Source: Thermocrinis ruber
Lineage (GTDB): Bacteria; Aquificota; Aquificia; Aquificales; Aquificaceae
Direction of reading: 5' to 3'
Assembly: GCF_000512735.1 (NCBI RefSeq)
Contig: NZ_CP007028.1
Location: forward strand, 620,001 to 684,000
DNA: 64,000 nucleotides
The notes beneath the pieces are model-generated. The model had not been told where the DNA came from. It searched no databases and saw only the letters and a program-made list of their open reading frames with translations. The first letter of the stretch is position 1, and every line of letters starts with the position of its first letter. The position numbers and the translations under genes are program-made. Of the stretch, positions 18,560-30,985 are shown piece after piece.

Positions 18560-18674
18560 GAATATACTAAATAACTAACATAATCCCTTCTTATAAACCC
18601 ACAAAAAACTTTTTATGGTTTTTTCTCTAACTTTTTGCTAAACTATGGGTAAAATTTCAAAAGGAGGTGTTTCT

Positions 18675-19943
18675 ATGACAACGAGAAGGGAGCTTCTCAA
18701 GTTGGCGGGCTTTGGGGTGGTTTATGCCACCTTTTATAAGGGTTTTGCCCTTGCTCAGGAGAGGGTGAATCCAGTTTTTGCCCTAAGGGGTGATGGTTCT
18801 GTGGTGGTTATTGACCCAAGGAAGGATGAGGTGATAGCCAAAATATCCACCGGTGGGAAGGGTGGAACCTTGGGCTCTATAACGAAAGATGGAAAATATC
18901 TCTTTGTAGCCAACAATGCACCAGACCAAAGGACGGTGAGCGTAATAGATGCGGTAAATCTTCGCAAGGTAAAGGATATAGAAACGGGTGCCAGACCAAA
19001 GCATCCCCTAGTTTCTCCCAATGGGAGAGTGGTTGCGGTAAATCACTCGGGTATTGATGATGGCAAAAACCGGGTAGCCTTTATATCCACAAGGAACTTG
19101 GAGGTTATAAATACAGTAGAACTGCCCGTTTTGAACACAGGGCACAAAGGAGACTTTAGCATGCACGGCACCTTTAGCCCCGATGGAAAATACTACTTCG
19201 TAGGAAGCTATTCAGACAACAGGTTTTTCATCATATCCACCTCGGACTTTTCGGTGGTAGCCCATGTGGATGTGGCGGGCAATCCCCACTACTTTGACTG
19301 CTACAAAAACACTCTTTGGGTGACGGTAGAATTCAACGAACCAAAGAAGGAAACATCCAAACCAATGGTATACGTCTATGACATCTCCAACCCCGCAAAG
19401 CCCAGGGAGATGATGGTTCTTGAGGTGGAACTTGACACCAACGAAATCTCCAACACTGCACGCATAGAAGGGCACCATGGAAACTTTACCAACGACGGAA
19501 AATACTTTATGGTTTGCAACAGAGGAGCTTCCCCCTTTGAAGGAACCACCGTTAGGGTATATACCAACGACGGAAAGCTGGTAAAAGCTATAAAATCTGC
19601 GGTCAAAGGCGTAGGACACGCTTACGTTTCTCCCAACGGAGAGTATGCGGTAATAACTCAATACGGAGACACTAAGATTGAGATCGTGAGCCTGAAGAAC
19701 TTTGAGACCATCAAGGTTATAGACACGGGAGTTGGACGGCACATGGGACATGTGGTCTTTATGGAGGATGGTAGCAAGTTTTACGTCACCAACAGGGTGG
19801 CAGATTCGGTCTTTGTGATAGATGGAAAGAAGTTTGAGATTATCAAAAGAATACAGACCGCAGAGGGCGGACAGGCACAGGGACAGGTGGTAAGACACTT
19901 TTACGGCGTCTTTGAAAGGGTTGTAAATCCATACTTGGCATAA
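18675..19943 (+). CDS. Periplasmic beta-propeller protein, AztD-like (candidate zinc metallochaperone)
   Basis: A 422-residue exported protein. TRRELLKLAGFG at the N-terminus looks like a twin-arginine signal. The mature part is a YVTN-type beta-propeller with repeating blades (SPDGKYYFVGS, TNDGKYFMVC, SPNGEYAVI). Histidine clusters recur at blade starts: GHKGDFSMHG, GHHGNF, GVGHAY and RHMGHV. This histidine pattern and the neighbouring zinc genes suggest the AztD zinc metallochaperone group; heme d1/NirF-type propellers are the alternative. AAGGAGGTG precedes the ATG at 18675. The stop overlaps the GTPase start by one base. Confidence 0.65.
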   Translation: MTTRRELLKLAGFGVVYATFYKGFALAQERVNPVFALRGDGSVVVIDPRKDEVIAKISTGGKGGTLGSITKDGKYLFVANNAPDQRTVSVIDAVNLRKVKDIETGARPKHPLVSPNGRVVAVNHSGIDDGKNRVAFISTRNLEVINTVELPVLNTGHKGDFSMHGTFSPDGKYYFVGSYSDNRFFIISTSDFSVVAHVDVAGNPHYFDCYKNTLWVTVEFNEPKKETSKPMVYVYDISNPAKPREMMVLEVELDTNEISNTARIEGHHGNFTNDGKYFMVCNRGASPFEGTTVRVYTNDGKLVKAIKSAVKGVGHAYVSPNGEYAVITQYGDTKIEIVSLKNFETIKVIDTGVGRHMGHVVFMEDGSKFYVTNRVADSVFVIDGKKFEIIKRIQTAEGGQAQGQVVRHFYGVFERVVNPYLA

Positions 19944-21223
19944 TGGCAAAAATTCCGGCGGTAGTTGTAAGCGGTTTCTTGGGCAGTGGGAAGACCACCT
20001 TTATTCTCAGGTCTCTCCTGCCCCGCCTAAAAGGAAGGAAAATTTCCGTAGTAGTCAATGACTTTGGAGAGGTCAACTACGATAAGATCAGGCTATACCA
20101 AGAGGGTTTGGAGGTCTATGGTATAGAGGGAAACTGCTTTTGCTGTGAGTTGGGTGGAGAGTTTTTAAACACCCTTGCCAGCATAAAAAGGCAGGGCGTT
20201 GAATTTTTGGTGGTGGAGACCTCGGGCGTTTCGGACCCATCCCCCATCTACTACAGCTTGGAGTCTTCAGGCTTTAGTGTAGAGTTAATAATGGGCGTCT
20301 TTGCCCTGGATATAGAGGAAGGACTTTTGAAGCACCCCCTTCTGCAAGCCCAAATGGATGCATCCCACTGCTTTGTTCTTACCAAGGCAGACCTGCTACC
20401 GGAGAGAGAAGTTTTAAGAAAGCTAAAGCCCTTTCTTGAGTGGCAAAAGCCCACCTTTTTGGCAAAGGAAGGCTATGTGGAGGAGGACATAGAGAGCCTA
20501 TTTGGGCAGGTTCAAGAAAAGCCAAGAAGTGGTGGAAAGCACCAAAGCTTTGAGTCTTATACCCTAAGGCTGAAGGGCTTTTACTCAAAGTTGGAGGTGG
20601 AGGAGTTTTTCAGAAAGCTTCCCAGAAATATATACAGGGCAAAGGGTATAATTCACTGTTTGGAAAGCCCCCTTCCACTGTCTCTCAACTACAGCTTTGG
20701 AAACCTAATTTGGGAAAGGCTTGAGGTGGAAGAGGAGCCCTTTTTGGTGTTCATAGGAGACAAGATAGACCATAAACTCTTTGAAGCATTTCCAAAGCCT
20801 CAAAGGCTCAGCTACATACACGAAAAACAGTGTTTTCCCCTCTGCGATTTTGACGCAAGGGAAGGCGTAGGGTACATAAAGGGTAATTTGGCGGGTGAGC
20901 TTGAAACTGCGGAGAGGCTTTTGGAAGAGTTGGAAGAGGAGGATTTCCTCTTTGTTTCGGGAGAGGCATTGAGCTTTAAGGGATTTTCAGACATAAAAAA
21001 GTTCTGCGAGGATTTAAAGAATTCTCACTTTAAAAGGCTTGTTCTCTGGAAGGTTCCGAGCGGTGTGGTTAGCTATCTTTTAGAACATCTCCCACCGGAC
21101 AAGCTGGTTTATCATCTCAGCAAGCATTACCTTTTACCCAAGGCTCACCTTTCCCTCCGGGTGGATACCAAGGAAAAGGAGGAAGTGCTTCTTTCTCTGA
21201 TTTCCAAAAGTTTCGTCGTTTGA
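19943..21223 (+). CDS. COG0523 (CobW/ZNG) family GTPase metallochaperone
   Basis: A 426-residue G3E GTPase. The P-loop is SGFLGSGKTTF at residues about 9-19, the metal-binding GNCFCCELGG (CxCC type) lies near residue 68, VVETSGVSDP near residue 90 is switch II-like, and TKAD gives nucleotide specificity. The C-terminal CobW_C domain follows residue 190. Family members deliver zinc or cobalt to enzymes. The position directly behind the AztD-like gene and opposite znuBA genes supports a zinc role by inference. Confidence 0.85.
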   Translation: MAKIPAVVVSGFLGSGKTTFILRSLLPRLKGRKISVVVNDFGEVNYDKIRLYQEGLEVYGIEGNCFCCELGGEFLNTLASIKRQGVEFLVVETSGVSDPSPIYYSLESSGFSVELIMGVFALDIEEGLLKHPLLQAQMDASHCFVLTKADLLPEREVLRKLKPFLEWQKPTFLAKEGYVEEDIESLFGQVQEKPRSGGKHQSFESYTLRLKGFYSKLEVEEFFRKLPRNIYRAKGIIHCLESPLPLSLNYSFGNLIWERLEVEEEPFLVFIGDKIDHKLFEAFPKPQRLSYIHEKQCFPLCDFDAREGVGYIKGNLAGELETAERLLEELEEEDFLFVSGEALSFKGFSDIKKFCEDLKNSHFKRLVLWKVPSGVVSYLLEHLPPDKLVYHLSKHYLLPKAHLSLRVDTKEKEEVLLSLISKSFVV

Positions 21224-21231
21224 GCTTGTAA

Positions 21232-21975
21232 TTAGCCTCTGAACCCTTTCAAAAACAGGACAGAAATGAACATCAAAATCCCAAAGAGGGCTTGCAAAAA
21301 GACCAAACTGAAGCCCGTGGGAAGGTCTAAATAAAAGGACAAAACTATGCCCGCAGTGTTTATAACAGCCCCATAAACCCACGCAAACAAAAGTCCCTTT
21401 CTTAAAAGCAAAGAAACCAAGGCTGGTGCCACAAGGATTGAAAAAACAATCAAAACACCCACCAAGCTAACAGAACTGGTTATAGTCAAAGAAAAAAGTA
21501 CAAAGAACGCCAACTCAGACCAAAAACCCTTTAAAAACTTCTTCCTCAGGTAAAGAAAAAGTCCAAAAACCGCGTAAAGGATGCCCGTTTTTATAACCTC
21601 CTCCCTTGGCACAAAGAGAATATCCTTAGCACTTAGCTTTAAAAACTCCTCCATGCCATGAAGAGACTTAGAAAGCACCAAAACCACCAAAGAAAAGCCA
21701 AGGGCATACAAAAGCCCTATAAAGGCTTCCGCGTAATCCCTTAACCTTTGGGAAAGTAGAACAAGCACACCGGCGAGCAAAGAGCATAAAAGGGAAAGAA
21801 GGTAAGAAGGTCTATCAAAGAGAAAGAGGGAGAGGGCGAGCCCCACCGCAGACGCTTGGGCTATGGCAATGTCTGTGAAGATGATCCCTCTTCTTACCAC
21901 CTCCATTCCAAAGTATGCATGGATGCCCAAAAGCACAAAGGAGAGCAGCAGGGCGTTGAGCAAAACATCCATCAT
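21232..21975 (-). CDS. Metal ABC transporter permease, ZnuB type
   Basis: A 247-residue ABC-3 family permease with seven to eight hydrophobic segments. RRGIIFTDIAIAQASAVG near residue 28 is the family signature, and a charged DYAEAF loop follows the third segment. It would form the inner-membrane channel for Zn2+ (or Mn2+). The start overlaps the znuA-type stop as ATGA. No ATPase gene lies in this operon. It is convergent with the COG0523 gene, 8 nt apart. Confidence 0.88.
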   Translation of the reverse strand: MMDVLLNALLLSFVLLGIHAYFGMEVVRRGIIFTDIAIAQASAVGLALSLFLFDRPSYLLSLLCSLLAGVLVLLSQRLRDYAEAFIGLLYALGFSLVVLVLSKSLHGMEEFLKLSAKDILFVPREEVIKTGILYAVFGLFLYLRKKFLKGFWSELAFFVLFSLTITSSVSLVGVLIVFSILVAPALVSLLLRKGLLFAWVYGAVINTAGIVLSFYLDLPTGFSLVFLQALFGILMFISVLFLKGFRG

Positions 21976-22844
21976 TGGCTGAGCCTTCTTAGAATCTCGT
22001 CAAACAGAGAGAAAAGGTCTTTGGCTTCTGGCACCGCACCCACCTCGTGGGGCAAAATAACCACCTTGGCGTTTAGCCTTTGGGCTACAAATTGGGCAGT
22101 CCTTTTTTCGTGATATACATCCTGAAGTATAAACTTTACTCCTTGGGCTTGGGAGATAAGACCCTCTATGTGCTTTCCAGTGGGAGGAATGCCCGGGAGG
22201 GGCTCCAAAGTGCCCACCAACACCATGCCATATCTTCTCAGGAGATAGTCGTAGAGTTTGTGGTATTGGATAACCTTTATGCCTTTGAGCTTTGCAAACT
22301 CTCTGTCCCACTCTGTTAGCTTTGCATTCCATCTCTTTAAAAAGTCCTCAAGGTTTCCTCTGTAATAAGCACAGTTTGGACTGTCCAACTGGCATAGCCT
22401 TTCCGCTATTGCCCTTGCCAATGGGGGAATGTTGTGAGGGTCAAGCTGATAGTGGGGGTTTCCCTCCGGATGGACATCCCCCATAGCCCTTGAGATATTT
22501 GCTGGCTTTTCTATGAGTTCCACAAACTGGGAGAGGTCCAAGTAGCCCTGCCTTCCGGGTTGGATTTTGGGGTTGTTGGATTGTTGTAAAAGAGGGGGCA
22601 AAAAGCCCACCTCAAGGCTTGCCCCTTGAACTATAAGAAGGTCTGCATCTCTCATTTTGGCTATGTGGGAGGGCTTTGGCACCACAAAGTGGGGGTCATC
22701 GGTTCCTCTGGCGATCACATAAAGGCTCACCCGGTCTTTGCCAACTTCCTTCACCAGCTCTCCGATCCAAGGGTAAGTGGCAACCACCTTTAGCTTGGCA
22801 AAGCTGACGGTAAGAAAAAGCAGGAAAAGAACCAAAACCCTCAT
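21972..22844 (-). CDS. Periplasmic metal-binding protein, ZnuA/AztC type
   Basis: A 290-residue cluster A-I binding protein with a signal peptide (MRVLVLFLLFLTVSFA). Candidate metal ligands are the histidines in TDDPHFV near residue 52, GNPHYQLDPH near residue 135 and QYHKLYDY near residue 190, with a late acidic residue. The usual His/Asp-rich loop of ZnuA is absent, as in AztC-type proteins. It would hand periplasmic zinc to the permease encoded next. Confidence 0.87.
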   Translation of the reverse strand: MRVLVLFLLFLTVSFAKLKVVATYPWIGELVKEVGKDRVSLYVIARGTDDPHFVVPKPSHIAKMRDADLLIVQGASLEVGFLPPLLQQSNNPKIQPGRQGYLDLSQFVELIEKPANISRAMGDVHPEGNPHYQLDPHNIPPLARAIAERLCQLDSPNCAYYRGNLEDFLKRWNAKLTEWDREFAKLKGIKVIQYHKLYDYLLRRYGMVLVGTLEPLPGIPPTGKHIEGLISQAQGVKFILQDVYHEKRTAQFVAQRLNAKVVILPHEVGAVPEAKDLFSLFDEILRRLSQ

Positions 22845-22856
22845 GGCTTTACCTCT

Positions 22857-24188
22857 TTAGAATGGATGGGCACCGTGGGCACCTATGGCAAAGTTGAACT
22901 GCAGGATGAATTCATTGACGGTTTTGCGCTTTCCATCATGGAAGAATGCCCTGTTTTGTCCCACTTGGAACCTTATGCGGGAGAACTCGGTGGGGTTGTA
23001 TTCCAGCATGGCGTAGTAGGCAGGGAGGTTGTTTGGTAAATTGAGATTTACCCCGTTTTTCTTAACATCGTTCTTGTTTATAAGGTTGTATTGAATGCCA
23101 GCCCTCCACCTTCTGTCAAACTTGAAGACCAATTGGGTATAAAAACCTCCTTGCTTCTTTTTGAGCTTTTCTGTTTCTAAGTCTCCCGCACTGTCATATT
23201 CGTACTTGGTTCCCTTTTGGTCCCTGTAGAGATACTCTCCTTGGAAGGAGATATACCTGTAAGAGTCTATCATGTACTTGGCGGTGAGGTCAAAGCCGTA
23301 AAGCTTGGTCTTTCCTGCAAAGGCGTGAGGATGTTCTGCATCAAGGTGGTTAACTCTGCTGTGCCCTGTTGCAAAAGAAAGCCCAGTCAGGAAAGAGAGA
23401 TTACCCACATCAAAGGAGGTCTTTACAAAGCCCAAATAGAGGTTTGGCTTTTTGGTGTCGCCTATGGTTATAGAGGTTGTAGGTGTGTTGATGTTATCAA
23501 CCAATCTAAACCCTTCCGTTCCAAAGCTCTGCTCGTTTTCTCCTTGCAAGACTTCCACGCCAAAGAGTAAATAGAAGGGTGTGGGTGCCAGCCAGTTTAA
23601 CTGAACTCCTTTTTCTACTAGTCCGTCATCTCCCAAGAAGACTTTATAAACGAGGGGTTGGTTGGCAAAGTCCCAAGCGTGGGGGTGTTGGGCGTTTAGC
23701 CTTCCAAAGGAACTTCTGAACTTTCCAACCTTGAACTGAAAGCCAAAGGGGAGTCCTCTGGTAACTGCGTAGGCTTCCTCTACCTCTGCACCATCTTCGG
23801 AGAAGGGAATGGTTGCATACAGGTCAAAGTATGGGTCTACGGGGGCATACAGATAAAGCTCTGCGTAGTTGAGGTTAAAACCTCTCTTTTCGTTTAGGGC
23901 TCCGTGTCCGTGTCCGTTGCCTTCGTGCCTATGATATAGCCCTGGGATCTCTAAGTGCTTGAATTCTTGGTCGTTTTTGTTCCTTGCCACAAAAGAGGTA
24001 TCCACGATCAAAGAAAGGTTGAGAAGGCTCCTCTGACCGGCAGGAGTAATCTGAAGGGCTTTTAGCCTCTCGTCGTATTTGCTCCTTAGCTGTAAGCCTC
24101 TGTCGGCGGGTGCTGACTCTTGTTCTTTTTTAACTTCTTGGGCAAAGGTAAAGCTAAAGATGGATAGTAAAAGCACAGCTTTTTTCAT
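22857..24188 (-). CDS. Outer-membrane beta-barrel protein of the zinc island
   Basis: A 443-residue protein with a signal peptide (MKKAVLLLSIFSFTFAQ), a short charged region, then about 400 residues of alternating amphipathic strands ending in a hydrophobic-aromatic terminus (HPF), the layout of a porin. A His-rich stretch YHRHEGNGHGHGAL near residue 93 could bind zinc. Zinc passage across the outer membrane is inferred from position. The ATG at 24188 is chosen because AGGAGGTG lies just before it; that site is one arm of a 12-bp inverted repeat. Confidence 0.75.
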   Translation of the reverse strand: MKKAVLLLSIFSFTFAQEVKKEQESAPADRGLQLRSKYDERLKALQITPAGQRSLLNLSLIVDTSFVARNKNDQEFKHLEIPGLYHRHEGNGHGHGALNEKRGFNLNYAELYLYAPVDPYFDLYATIPFSEDGAEVEEAYAVTRGLPFGFQFKVGKFRSSFGRLNAQHPHAWDFANQPLVYKVFLGDDGLVEKGVQLNWLAPTPFYLLFGVEVLQGENEQSFGTEGFRLVDNINTPTTSITIGDTKKPNLYLGFVKTSFDVGNLSFLTGLSFATGHSRVNHLDAEHPHAFAGKTKLYGFDLTAKYMIDSYRYISFQGEYLYRDQKGTKYEYDSAGDLETEKLKKKQGGFYTQLVFKFDRRWRAGIQYNLINKNDVKKNGVNLNLPNNLPAYYAMLEYNPTEFSRIRFQVGQNRAFFHDGKRKTVNEFILQFNFAIGAHGAHPF

Positions 24189-24194
24189 GGCTTT

Positions 24195-24263
24195 CACCTC
24201 CTGTGGTTTTTTGGTTTTTTGGGTTTAAGGGATTTTTTGAAAAGCCTTAGCCCACAGGAGGTG
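24195..24263 (-). promoter_or_regulatory. mRNA hairpin sequestering the outer-membrane gene's ribosome binding site
   Basis: On the minus-strand mRNA, CACCTCCTGTGG (24263 to 24252) forms the last codons of the His-rich ORF. It is perfectly complementary to CCACAGGAGGTG (24206 to 24195), which contains the Shine-Dalgarno site of the outer-membrane gene. The loop is 45 nt. A ribosome stopping at the His-rich TAA (24249-24247) would cover the first arm and free the site. Confidence 0.65.
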
Positions 24264-24513
24264 CCCGAATGGGATGGTTATATGGAATTTCAAGCTTTGG
24301 TGCGGTCTCTTGGGTTTTTTCTTTCTCTACAAAAAGGACAGGATTTTCAAGCCTTGGTTGAAGTTTTACATCCTCCTTGTGCTGGGGTTGATGCTGGATT
24401 ATACAGAGCTCACAGTCTTGGTGGAATTGGTGGTCTTCGTGATGGTGCTCTGCGGTCTTAAAATCCACAAAGACCAGAAGAAAGGAAAGCAGAAGGGTAG
24501 CTAACTTTCTCAT
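24247..24513 (-). CDS. Secreted histidine-rich small protein, first gene of the zinc operon
   Basis: An 88-residue protein with a signal peptide (about residues 1-21), then EHHHEDHQFHQDCELC, which carries five histidines and two cysteines, and IIQHQPQHKED. The composition suggests periplasmic metal binding, similar in style to small DUF2946-like proteins; no firm family can be named. The ATG at 24513 lies 12 nt after a TATAAT box and has no ribosome binding site. Its last codons supply the anti-Shine-Dalgarno arm for the next gene. Confidence 0.65.
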   Translation of the reverse strand: MRKLATLLLSFLLVFVDFKTAEHHHEDHQFHQDCELCIIQHQPQHKEDVKLQPRLENPVLFVEKEKTQETAPKLEIPYNHPIRAPPVG

Positions 24514-24521
24514 AACCTGAG

Positions 24522-24531
24522 TATAATTATA
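24522..24531. promoter_or_regulatory. Overlapping divergent -10 boxes (A-adding enzyme / zinc operon)
   Basis: TATAATTATA contains TATAAT on the plus strand (24522-24527, 9 nt before GTG 24537) and TATAAT on the minus strand (24531-24526, 12 nt before ATG 24513), sharing two bases. The surrounding GTATAATTATAAC is nearly palindromic and could also serve as an operator. Confidence 0.5.
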
Positions 24532-24536
24532 ACACA

Positions 24537-30140: not shown

Positions 30141-30501
30141 TCAGGAGCTGAGTGGGACTCCCATAGAGGTGGGAGAAGGTTATGCGGTGGTGGAGCTAAA
30201 GACAAAGGAAAACATGCGTGCGGATGAGAAAAACTTGGTGCATGGAGGTTTTATCTTTAGCCTTGCGGACTACTGCGCCATGCTGACGGTCAATGAACCC
30301 ACCGTTGTTTTAGCATCCGCCAAGGTGGATTTTAAAAAACCCGTGGTGGTAGGAGACACCCTCCGGGCAGAGGGCAGGCTTCTAAGGGCAGAGGGCAAAA
30401 AGCGGTGGGTAGAGGTAAAGGTCTATAGAAACCAAGATTTGGTCTTTTTGGGAGAGTTCCTGTGCGTGGTGCCCGATAAACATGTGCTTGATGTTGAGTG
30501 A
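30112..30501 (+). CDS. PaaI-type hotdog thioesterase
   Basis: A 129-residue hotdog-fold protein. NLVHGGFIFSLADYCAM near residue 42 is the active-site signature, and the strand KVDFKKPVVVGDTL follows. Such enzymes hydrolyse acyl-CoA thioesters; FapR-like acyl sensing is an alternative but no DNA-binding domain is present. The ATG overlaps trpF by 29 nt. Confidence 0.8.
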   Translation: MQLRTHVKIDQELSGTPIEVGEGYAVVELKTKENMRADEKNLVHGGFIFSLADYCAMLTVNEPTVVLASAKVDFKKPVVVGDTLRAEGRLLRAEGKKRWVEVKVYRNQDLVFLGEFLCVVPDKHVLDVE

Positions 30502-30547
30502 ATTTTGTGATAGATTTAATACAAATCCAACTCAAGGAGGTGATCTC

Positions 30548-30985
30548 ATGGTCAGGGCAGTGCTCTTTGGCTTAAGTGCGGTTGCCTTAGCCTTAGCCCA
30601 ACCGAAGATTGAGGTGAAGGATCCATGGGTCAGGCTTGTCCCACCCAACGCAAAAGCCACCGCCGCATACATGAAGATTGAAAACAAGGGGACAGAAGCA
30701 GACAGGCTGGTGGATGCGTCCAGCAATGTTTCCAAGATCACCGAGCTTCACGAGACGGTGGAGGGCAAAATGCGCCGAGTAAAAGCCATAGAAGTTCCCG
30801 CAGGAAAGACCGTTGAACTAAAGCCCGGAGGTCTCCATGTAATGCTCATAGAACTCAAGGAGCCCCTCAAGGAAGGTCAAACGGTGGAAATTACCCTAAA
30901 GTTTGAAAAGTCAGGAGAGATAAAAGTTCAAGCGCCCATCAAAAAGGGAATGGGTGGTATGCATCACCATCACCACGGGCATTGA
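30548..30985 (+). CDS. PCuAC-family periplasmic copper chaperone
   Basis: A 145-residue exported protein (signal MVRAVLFGLSAVALALAQ). The copper site pattern is present: His in TELHETVEG, then Met in GKMRRVKAI, and HVM in GGLHVMLIEL about residue 98. The C-terminus is His-rich (GGMHHHHHGH) and may also hold metal. The family delivers Cu(I) to cytochrome oxidase CuA centres. CAAGGAGGTG precedes the ATG at 30548. The upstream frame is open, but the signal peptide fixes the start. Confidence 0.9.
   Translation: MVRAVLFGLSAVALALAQPKIEVKDPWVRLVPPNAKATAAYMKIENKGTEADRLVDASSNVSKITELHETVEGKMRRVKAIEVPAGKTVELKPGGLHVMLIELKEPLKEGQTVEITLKFEKSGEIKVQAPIKKGMGGMHHHHHGH

What the first reader, a model, noticed from the sequence alone, without database searches (positions are those of the whole stretch)
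24188..24263. A 12-bp hairpin hides the ribosome binding site until the His-rich ORF is translated
The last codons of the His-rich ORF (CACCTCCTGTGG) are perfectly complementary to CCACAGGAGGTG, the Shine-Dalgarno region of the outer-membrane gene, with a 45-nt loop. A ribosome at the His-rich stop codon would cover the first arm. This predicts translational coupling, in which stalling or loss of translation of the metal-binding leader shuts off the outer-membrane protein. A histidine-rich leader gating a zinc gene would be a new type of control.
Basis: partly seen in the sequence, partly recalled or inferred. Interest (0 to 1): 0.75.

Follow-up and report, generated by a model that had tools for sequence, protein, structure and literature searches.

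The report
RAPP-leader hairpin hiding a ribosome-binding site
In heat-loving Aquificales bacteria, the last codons of a small metal-binding protein form a conserved RNA hairpin over the start signal of the next metal-uptake gene, and the same codons spell a known ribosome-stalling motif, so a stalled ribosome probably switches the uptake gene on when metal is scarce.

Summary
The hairpin is real, exceptional in its genome and conserved as a pair. Of about 160 genes sampled from this genome, only this one has a perfect Shine-Dalgarno (SD)-masking helix of 8 bp or more (12 bp, 45-nt loop). In 45 related leaders from two Aquificales families, the arms co-vary. The helix stays with the leader even when a different gene follows it. 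The leader ends in Arg-Ala-Pro-Pro, a ribosome-arrest motif proven in CruR and other peptides, and the anti-SD arm is those codons (RAPPVG). Both Pro codons are CCT (32/35 and 30/35 leaders against 34% background). The leader also has HxHxD...HxxCxxC exactly 45 residues before RAPP, the spacing seen in CruR/DUF2946 copper-sensing leaders. It precedes an outer-membrane gene plus znuA/znuB. Best reading: a SecM-like, arrest-gated SD hairpin with a CruR/CutF-like metal sensor. Low metal would stall the ribosome at RAPP, melt the hairpin and turn on uptake. Arrest, metal identity and sign of the response are inferred, not shown. It is a new variant of a known kind: an anti-SD built into the arrest codons was not found described.

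The parts
24247..24513 (-). Leader ORF (88 aa): hydrophobic export-signal-like N terminus, HHHED, HQDCELC, C-terminal RAPPVG, stop TAA
   Evidence: homologues in 46 of 112 Aquificales genomes; invariant H23 H25 D27 H31 C34 C37 R83 P85 P86
24256..24267 (-). RAPP arrest-motif codons CGG GCA CCT CCT
   Evidence: Sequence. RAPP arrest is published: PMC12992588 (CruR in vitro, Pro3 in P-site, Pro4 in A-site), PMC10951233
24252..24263 (-). First hairpin arm CACCTCCTGTGG (anti-SD), inside the A-P-P-V-G codons
   Evidence: co-varies with second arm
24207..24251 (-). 45-nt A-rich loop holding the leader stop codon
24195..24206 (-). Second hairpin arm CCACAGGAGGTG with the SD (GGAGG at 24202..24198) of the outer-membrane gene
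22857..24188 (-). Outer-membrane protein gene (443 aa, His-rich loop HRHEGNGHGHG); the gated gene
   Evidence: no Pfam or NCBIfam hit for the window protein; a shorter protein after a relative's leader matches beta-barrel porin BBP2 weakly
21972..22844 (-). znuA-like metal-binding protein gene, same operon
   Evidence: PF01297 E 1.4e-40
21232..21975 (-). znuB-like permease gene, overlaps znuA
   Evidence: PF00950 E 4.7e-17
24526..24531 (-). -10-like TATAAT 12 nt before the leader ATG; implies a nearly leaderless transcript that always carries the leader ORF
   Evidence: Sequence; similar -10 elements just before many relatives' leaders; inference, not a tested promoter

Best explanation
This is a cis-acting translational switch. 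The leader encodes a small exported metal-binding peptide whose C terminus, RAPP, arrests its own ribosome. When the ribosome is not on these codons, they pair with the SD of the next gene and block its translation. A ribosome stalled with the two prolines in P and A sites covers the whole first arm and frees the SD, while leaving about 40 nt for a second ribosome to initiate. Metal binding to the HxHxD/HxxCxxC site of the nascent chain (or its export) relieves the stall, the hairpin closes and outer-membrane metal uptake falls; scarcity does the reverse. Shown by computation: hairpin, co-variation, codon constraint, tracking with the leader, energetic effect of a footprint. Inferred: arrest, metal sensing, direction, and zinc as the metal.
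For: 1) Co-variation in 35 non-redundant leaders: helix 9.9 bp for native arm pairs vs 7.3 for arms swapped between species (z 9.5, p 5e-5). It holds within Aquificaceae and Hydrogenothermaceae separately and against the nearest relative only (native longer in 31 of 35). 7 of 13 pairs change on both sides; covariation score 0.215 vs 0.093 shuffled, 0.04-0.08 for slid registers. 2) Pro codons CCT in 32/35 and 30/35 vs 34% background (p 2e-12, 4e-10); proteobacterial DUF2946 RAPP genes show no such bias (6/28, 7/28). 3) Where a DsrE-like gene follows the leader, the helix (9-14 bp) is at its SD and none is at the outer-membrane gene's SD. 4) RxPP at 1-8 residues from the stop in 45 of 47 leaders. 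CxxC-RxPP spacing is 44-47, mode 45, as in DUF2946 proteins (PMC9426467). 5) At 75 C a footprint on RAPP lowers the SD-opening cost from 6.4 to 2.3 kcal/mol in the window and from 5.9 to 1.6 in the median leader; ordinary genes 1.6. 6) RAPP arrests ribosomes in CruR in vitro (PMC12992588); SD-masking stem-loops gated by such leaders are shown for SecM and CutF (PMC10987492, PMC9973294).
Against: No expression, toeprint or metal data exist for this operon. Some leaders have RSPP or RGPP, and RSPP was only partly permissive for arrest in published mutants. A few relatives depart from the pattern: L006 and L036 use CCA codons and pair weakly; G056 has a frameshifted leader with both arms kept. 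The shuffles ignore part of the phylogeny. CruR and CutF respond to copper in opposite directions, so the sign cannot be read from sequence.
Confidence: 0.72

Rival explanations
1. Plain translational coupling: the hairpin only ensures that the outer-membrane gene is translated when the leader is, with no regulated arrest; the leader protein has its own periplasmic job, such as metal chaperone.
For: Hairpin and co-variation alone need no arrest. A terminating ribosome also covers the arm. The leader is conserved as a protein.
Against: Invariant RxPP just before the stop and fixed 45-residue distance to CxxC match known arrest leaders. RAPP-like motifs are otherwise avoided in proteomes (PMC12992588). 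The protein is otherwise poorly conserved between motifs (40% mean identity).
Confidence: 0.15
2. CruR-type control: arrest at RAPP prevents Rho-dependent termination before the outer-membrane gene, and the hairpin is secondary.
For: CruR with the same motifs works through Rho (PMC9426467); untranslated A/C-rich spacer after the stop codon.
Against: The CruR-bfrG gap is long (162 nt) while here the SD is usually 30-60 nt from the stop. RAPP codons in DUF2946 genes are not biased to CCT, so the anti-SD is specific to Aquificales and would be unexplained.
Confidence: 0.08
3. By-product: the RAPP protein motif happens to be encoded CCTCCT, and any SD is complementary to it; there is no selected hairpin.
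For: The five-base core pairs by necessity once CCTCC and GGAGG are present.
Against: Strong codon bias at both prolines, and compensatory changes outside the core, on both sides of it. Only one gene of 161 in this genome has such pairing.
Confidence: 0.03
4. The stem is an intrinsic terminator or a ligand-binding RNA (riboswitch).
For: Stable stem between two genes.
Against: Loop of 45 nt, no U-run; the terminator scan found none here. No Rfam family on this strand, and only sub-threshold microRNA models on the other.
Confidence: 0.02

Closest known systems
CruR (DUF2946 uORF upstream of bfrG, Bordetella pertussis; PMC9426467, arrest in PMC12992588)
   Same: Small leader, CxxC, C-terminal RAPP, 45 residues between them; followed by outer-membrane metal transporter; first gene of the operon
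   Different: CruR responds to copper through Rho termination across a 162-nt gap; its RAPP codons are not known to be an anti-SD. The Aquificales leader is not recognised by the DUF2946 profile
CutF (DUF2946-like, upstream of cutO, Rhodobacter capsulatus; PMC9973294)
   Same: Exported metal-binding leader with proline-rich C terminus; stem-loop masks the SD of the next gene; needs translation in cis
   Different: CxxxC motif, copper induces rather than represses, stem-loop described as intergenic, target is a copper oxidase; strong stalling was not detected
SecM-SecA (Escherichia coli; described in PMC10987492 and PMC7897499)
   Same: C-terminal arrest peptide (RAGP) near the stop; stalled ribosome opens a stem-loop that hides the next gene's SD
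   Different: SecM senses protein export, has no metal site, controls secA
RAPP arrest peptides ApcA, ApdA, ApdP (PMC7897499, PMC10951233)
   Same: RAPP-type arrest at the C terminus of exported or membrane leaders
   Different: No SD-masking hairpin was found for them (PMC7897499); they precede sec or yidC genes

Membership tests
CruR/DUF2946 (PF11162) | Scores above the Pfam cut-off | tested here: not met
   14.8 bits vs cut-off 23.7; 1 of 15 leaders gives any hit; profile-profile probability 3%; 0 of 21 Aquificales genomes match
CruR/DUF2946 (PF11162) | CxxC motif followed 45 +/-2 residues later by RAPP near the stop | tested here: met
   Spacing 44-47 (mode 45) in 44 leaders; 43-46 in 26 of 27 DUF2946 proteins measured alongside
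CruR/DUF2946 (PF11162) | Heads an operon for outer-membrane metal uptake | tested here: met
   Outer-membrane gene plus znuA/znuB, or TonB receptor
CruR/DUF2946 (PF11162) | Metal relieves RAPP arrest; Rho-dependent termination | not testable with these tools
   Needs in vitro translation and transcript analysis
SecM-type arrest-gated SD hairpin | Next gene's SD sequestered by a stem whose first arm a stalled ribosome would cover | tested here: met
   SD lies 40-95 nt after the first arrest proline, leaving room to initiate
SecM-type arrest-gated SD hairpin | Translation arrest at the leader C terminus | not testable with these tools
   RAPP motif present and invariant RxPP; arrest itself needs toeprinting
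SecM-type arrest-gated SD hairpin | Regulates a protein-export component (monitoring substrate) | tested here: not met
   Downstream genes are outer-membrane, DsrE-like, ZnuA/B or TonB receptor
Intrinsic terminator | Short-loop G+C stem followed by U-run | tested here: not met
   45-nt loop, A-rich, no hit at 24195-24263
Known riboswitch or RNA family (Rfam 15) | Match above gathering score | tested here: not met

The most novel reading that the evidence does not exclude
An order-wide metal (possibly zinc) sensor in Aquificales in which one stretch of mRNA has three jobs: it encodes the ribosome-arrest motif, it is the anti-SD that silences the next gene, and it is the site whose occupancy by the arrested ribosome switches that gene on. 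It arose independently of, or diverged beyond recognition from, the DUF2946 family.
Probability: 0.5. Interest if true: 0.8.

Novelty: new variant of a known kind. Interest (0 to 1): 0.7.

Why it matters
Arrest peptides that sense metals are known from a few proteobacterial copper operons. This would extend them to the deep-branching thermophilic Aquificales and to a znuA/znuB-type uptake operon. It also shows protein-level (RAPP) and RNA-level (anti-SD) constraints packed into the same four codons. The co-variation gives ready natural variants for testing how arrest peptides and SD hairpins co-evolve, and a hairpin strong enough to work at growth temperatures near 75-85 C.

Tried and rejected
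Alignment A1 was too diverse for a genome-collection scan; a strict hairpin pattern was scanned instead. Tested and rejected: DUF2946 membership by profile; anti-SD in proteobacterial DUF2946 RAPP codons; terminator; Rfam families. A single-sequence structure model of the outer-membrane protein failed (pLDDT 34) and was not used for fold searches. Folding at 37 C left residual SD pairing under a footprint, so I repeated it at 60-85 C.

Full report
WHAT IS THERE. The window lies in a complete 1.52-Mb genome of the same genus as a Thermocrinis metagenome genome (L104 corresponds to G054, same genus). On the minus strand an operon-like run reads: leader ORF 24513..24247 (88 aa), outer-membrane gene 24188..22857, znuA-like 22844..21972 (PF01297, E 1.4e-40) and znuB-like 21975..21232 (PF00950). 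The claimed arms are exact: CACCTCCTGTGG at 24263..24252 and CCACAGGAGGTG at 24206..24195, 45-nt loop, the second arm holding the SD.

IS IT MORE THAN CHANCE. The region folds at -32 kcal/mol, z -3.7. In 264 kb of this genome (window plus ten stretches), 161 genes with a good SD were screened for a complementary stretch within 95 nt upstream; this gene alone exceeds 7 Watson-Crick pairs. At 75 C its SD costs 6.3 kcal/mol to open, rank 1 of 154; the median gene costs 1.6.

RELATIVES. The outer-membrane protein has relatives in 48 of 112 Aquificales genomes and the leader in 46. Across the phylum, leaders occur only in this order; the one further match is a weak hit full of stops. Leaders share HxHxD, HxxCxxC and R[A/G/S]PP with nine invariant residues. 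I extracted 47 distinct leaders; 45 end in RxPP within a few residues of the stop. In nearly all, the Pro-Pro codons pair with the GGAGG of whatever gene comes next.

CO-VARIATION. Because Pro-Pro codons and an SD are partly complementary by nature, I tested only what lies beyond the core, and codon choice. With 35 leaders below 75% protein identity, native arms form 9.9 continuous pairs against 7.3 when arms are swapped between species (z 9.5). Flanking positions 3' of the core pair 3.17 of 5 against 2.31 (z 5.7), and 5' positions 2.69 of 4 against 2.30 (z 3.9). The effect holds within each family (Aquificaceae 10.1 vs 8.5; Hydrogenothermaceae 9.6 vs 7.2; the family names are my reading of the two groups), and against the nearest relative alone (31 of 35 native longer, p 4e-7). 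The pair counter gives 51 cells changed on both sides against 23.7 in shuffles, 7 pairs with double changes, score 0.215 vs 0.093, and no slid register comes near. Examples: CCTCCTGCTTTAGTT/AACTAAAGTAGGAGG (L026), CCTCCTCTCTT/AAGAGAGGAGG (L027), GCTCCTCC/GGAGGAGC (L045). Caveat: these tests treat rows as independent after thinning; a tree-aware test was not run.

CODON CONSTRAINT. The first Pro codon is CCT in 32 of 35 and the second in 30 of 35, against 34% of prolines in the same leaders and their downstream genes (p 2e-12 and 4e-10). In 28 RAPP-type genes from DUF2946 loci, mostly of Gamma- and Betaproteobacteria, CCT is used 6 and 7 times, and no such anti-SD arrangement is evident. So the RNA role appears particular to Aquificales.

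THE HAIRPIN FOLLOWS THE LEADER. In nine tested genomes a DsrE-like gene sits between leader and outer-membrane gene. There the helix (9-14 bp) is on the DsrE gene's SD, while the outer-membrane gene, now next to the DsrE stop codon, has none. In 15 of 16 genomes with the leader directly before the outer-membrane gene, the following junction could be checked and had at most 6 bp. In three genomes the leader precedes a TonB-dependent receptor instead.

WHAT THE LEADER IS. RAPP is an established ribosome-arrest motif: CruR arrests in vitro with the third and fourth residues' codons in P and A sites (PMC12992588), and structures exist for other RAPP peptides (PMC10951233). In CruR, copper at CxxC relieves arrest, and the 45-residue spacing is conserved (PMC9426467). 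The window leader has exactly 45 residues between C37 and R83; 44 Aquificales leaders have 44-47. Yet it is not a DUF2946 member by profile (14.8 bits vs cut-off 23.7; profile-profile probability 3%). I therefore say it works like CruR and do not file it in that family. SD-masking hairpins opened by arrested leaders are known for SecM and, for metal, CutF (PMC10987492, PMC9973294). For RAPP peptides ApcA, ApdA and ApdP, no SD-masking hairpin was found (PMC7897499).

HOW IT LIKELY WORKS. A ribosome stalled with Pro85 and Pro86 in P and A sites would cover about 15 nt on either side, that is, the whole first arm. The SD begins 40-95 nt after the first proline codon (median 55, 60 in the window), so a second ribosome can start. 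Modelling the footprint at 75 C drops the SD-opening cost to 2.3 kcal/mol in the window (from 6.4), and to a median of 1.6 (from 5.9) across 45 leaders, like an ordinary gene. When metal, or export, releases the ribosome, the hairpin closes. By analogy with CruR and with uptake genes downstream, scarcity should mean ON. The metal is unknown: znuA/znuB point to zinc, the CxxC and the known relatives to copper. A -10-like box 12 nt before the ATG suggests an almost leaderless transcript, so every transcript would carry the leader (inference).

VERDICT. Observation confirmed. The specific design, arrest codons doubling as the anti-SD in an Aquificales metal-uptake operon, I found in no paper searched, so I rate it a new variant of a known kind.

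Noticed in passing
24513..24533 (-): TATAAT-like box ends 12 nt before the leader ATG, leaving no room for an SD: a nearly leaderless start. Many relatives show the same. The AT palindrome GTATAATTATAAC (24521-24533) could also be a metalloregulator operator.
   Followed up: partly
L007, L008, L010, L013, L016, L017, L018, L021, L022, L070: A DsrE-like 112-aa gene sits between leader and outer-membrane gene; function in a metal-uptake operon unclear.
   Followed up: partly
L078, L079, L080: Leader followed by a TonB-dependent receptor (ExbB gene next in L080) instead of the porin-like gene and znuA/B.
   Followed up: partly
L042 1332-1400 (minus strand): Leader frameshifted in a metagenome genome (G056) while both hairpin arms are intact; may be a sequencing error or a decaying leader.
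   Followed up: partly
L037: G035 has DsrE-like and outer-membrane genes without any leader, directly after a SecF-like gene; a natural leaderless comparison.
   Followed up: partly
30482-30985 (+): PCu(A)C copper chaperone (PF04314, E 8.5e-41) with a C-terminal His tail MGGMHHHHHGH.
   Followed up: partly
18645-21223 (+): Beta-propeller protein and CobW-family GTPase (weak ZigA zinc-chaperone similarity) converge on the znuB end of the operon; no znuC was seen next to znuA/znuB.
   Followed up: partly
22857-24188 (-): The window's outer-membrane protein lacks the N-terminal coiled-coil stretch present in close relatives (443 vs about 475-490 residues).
   Followed up: no
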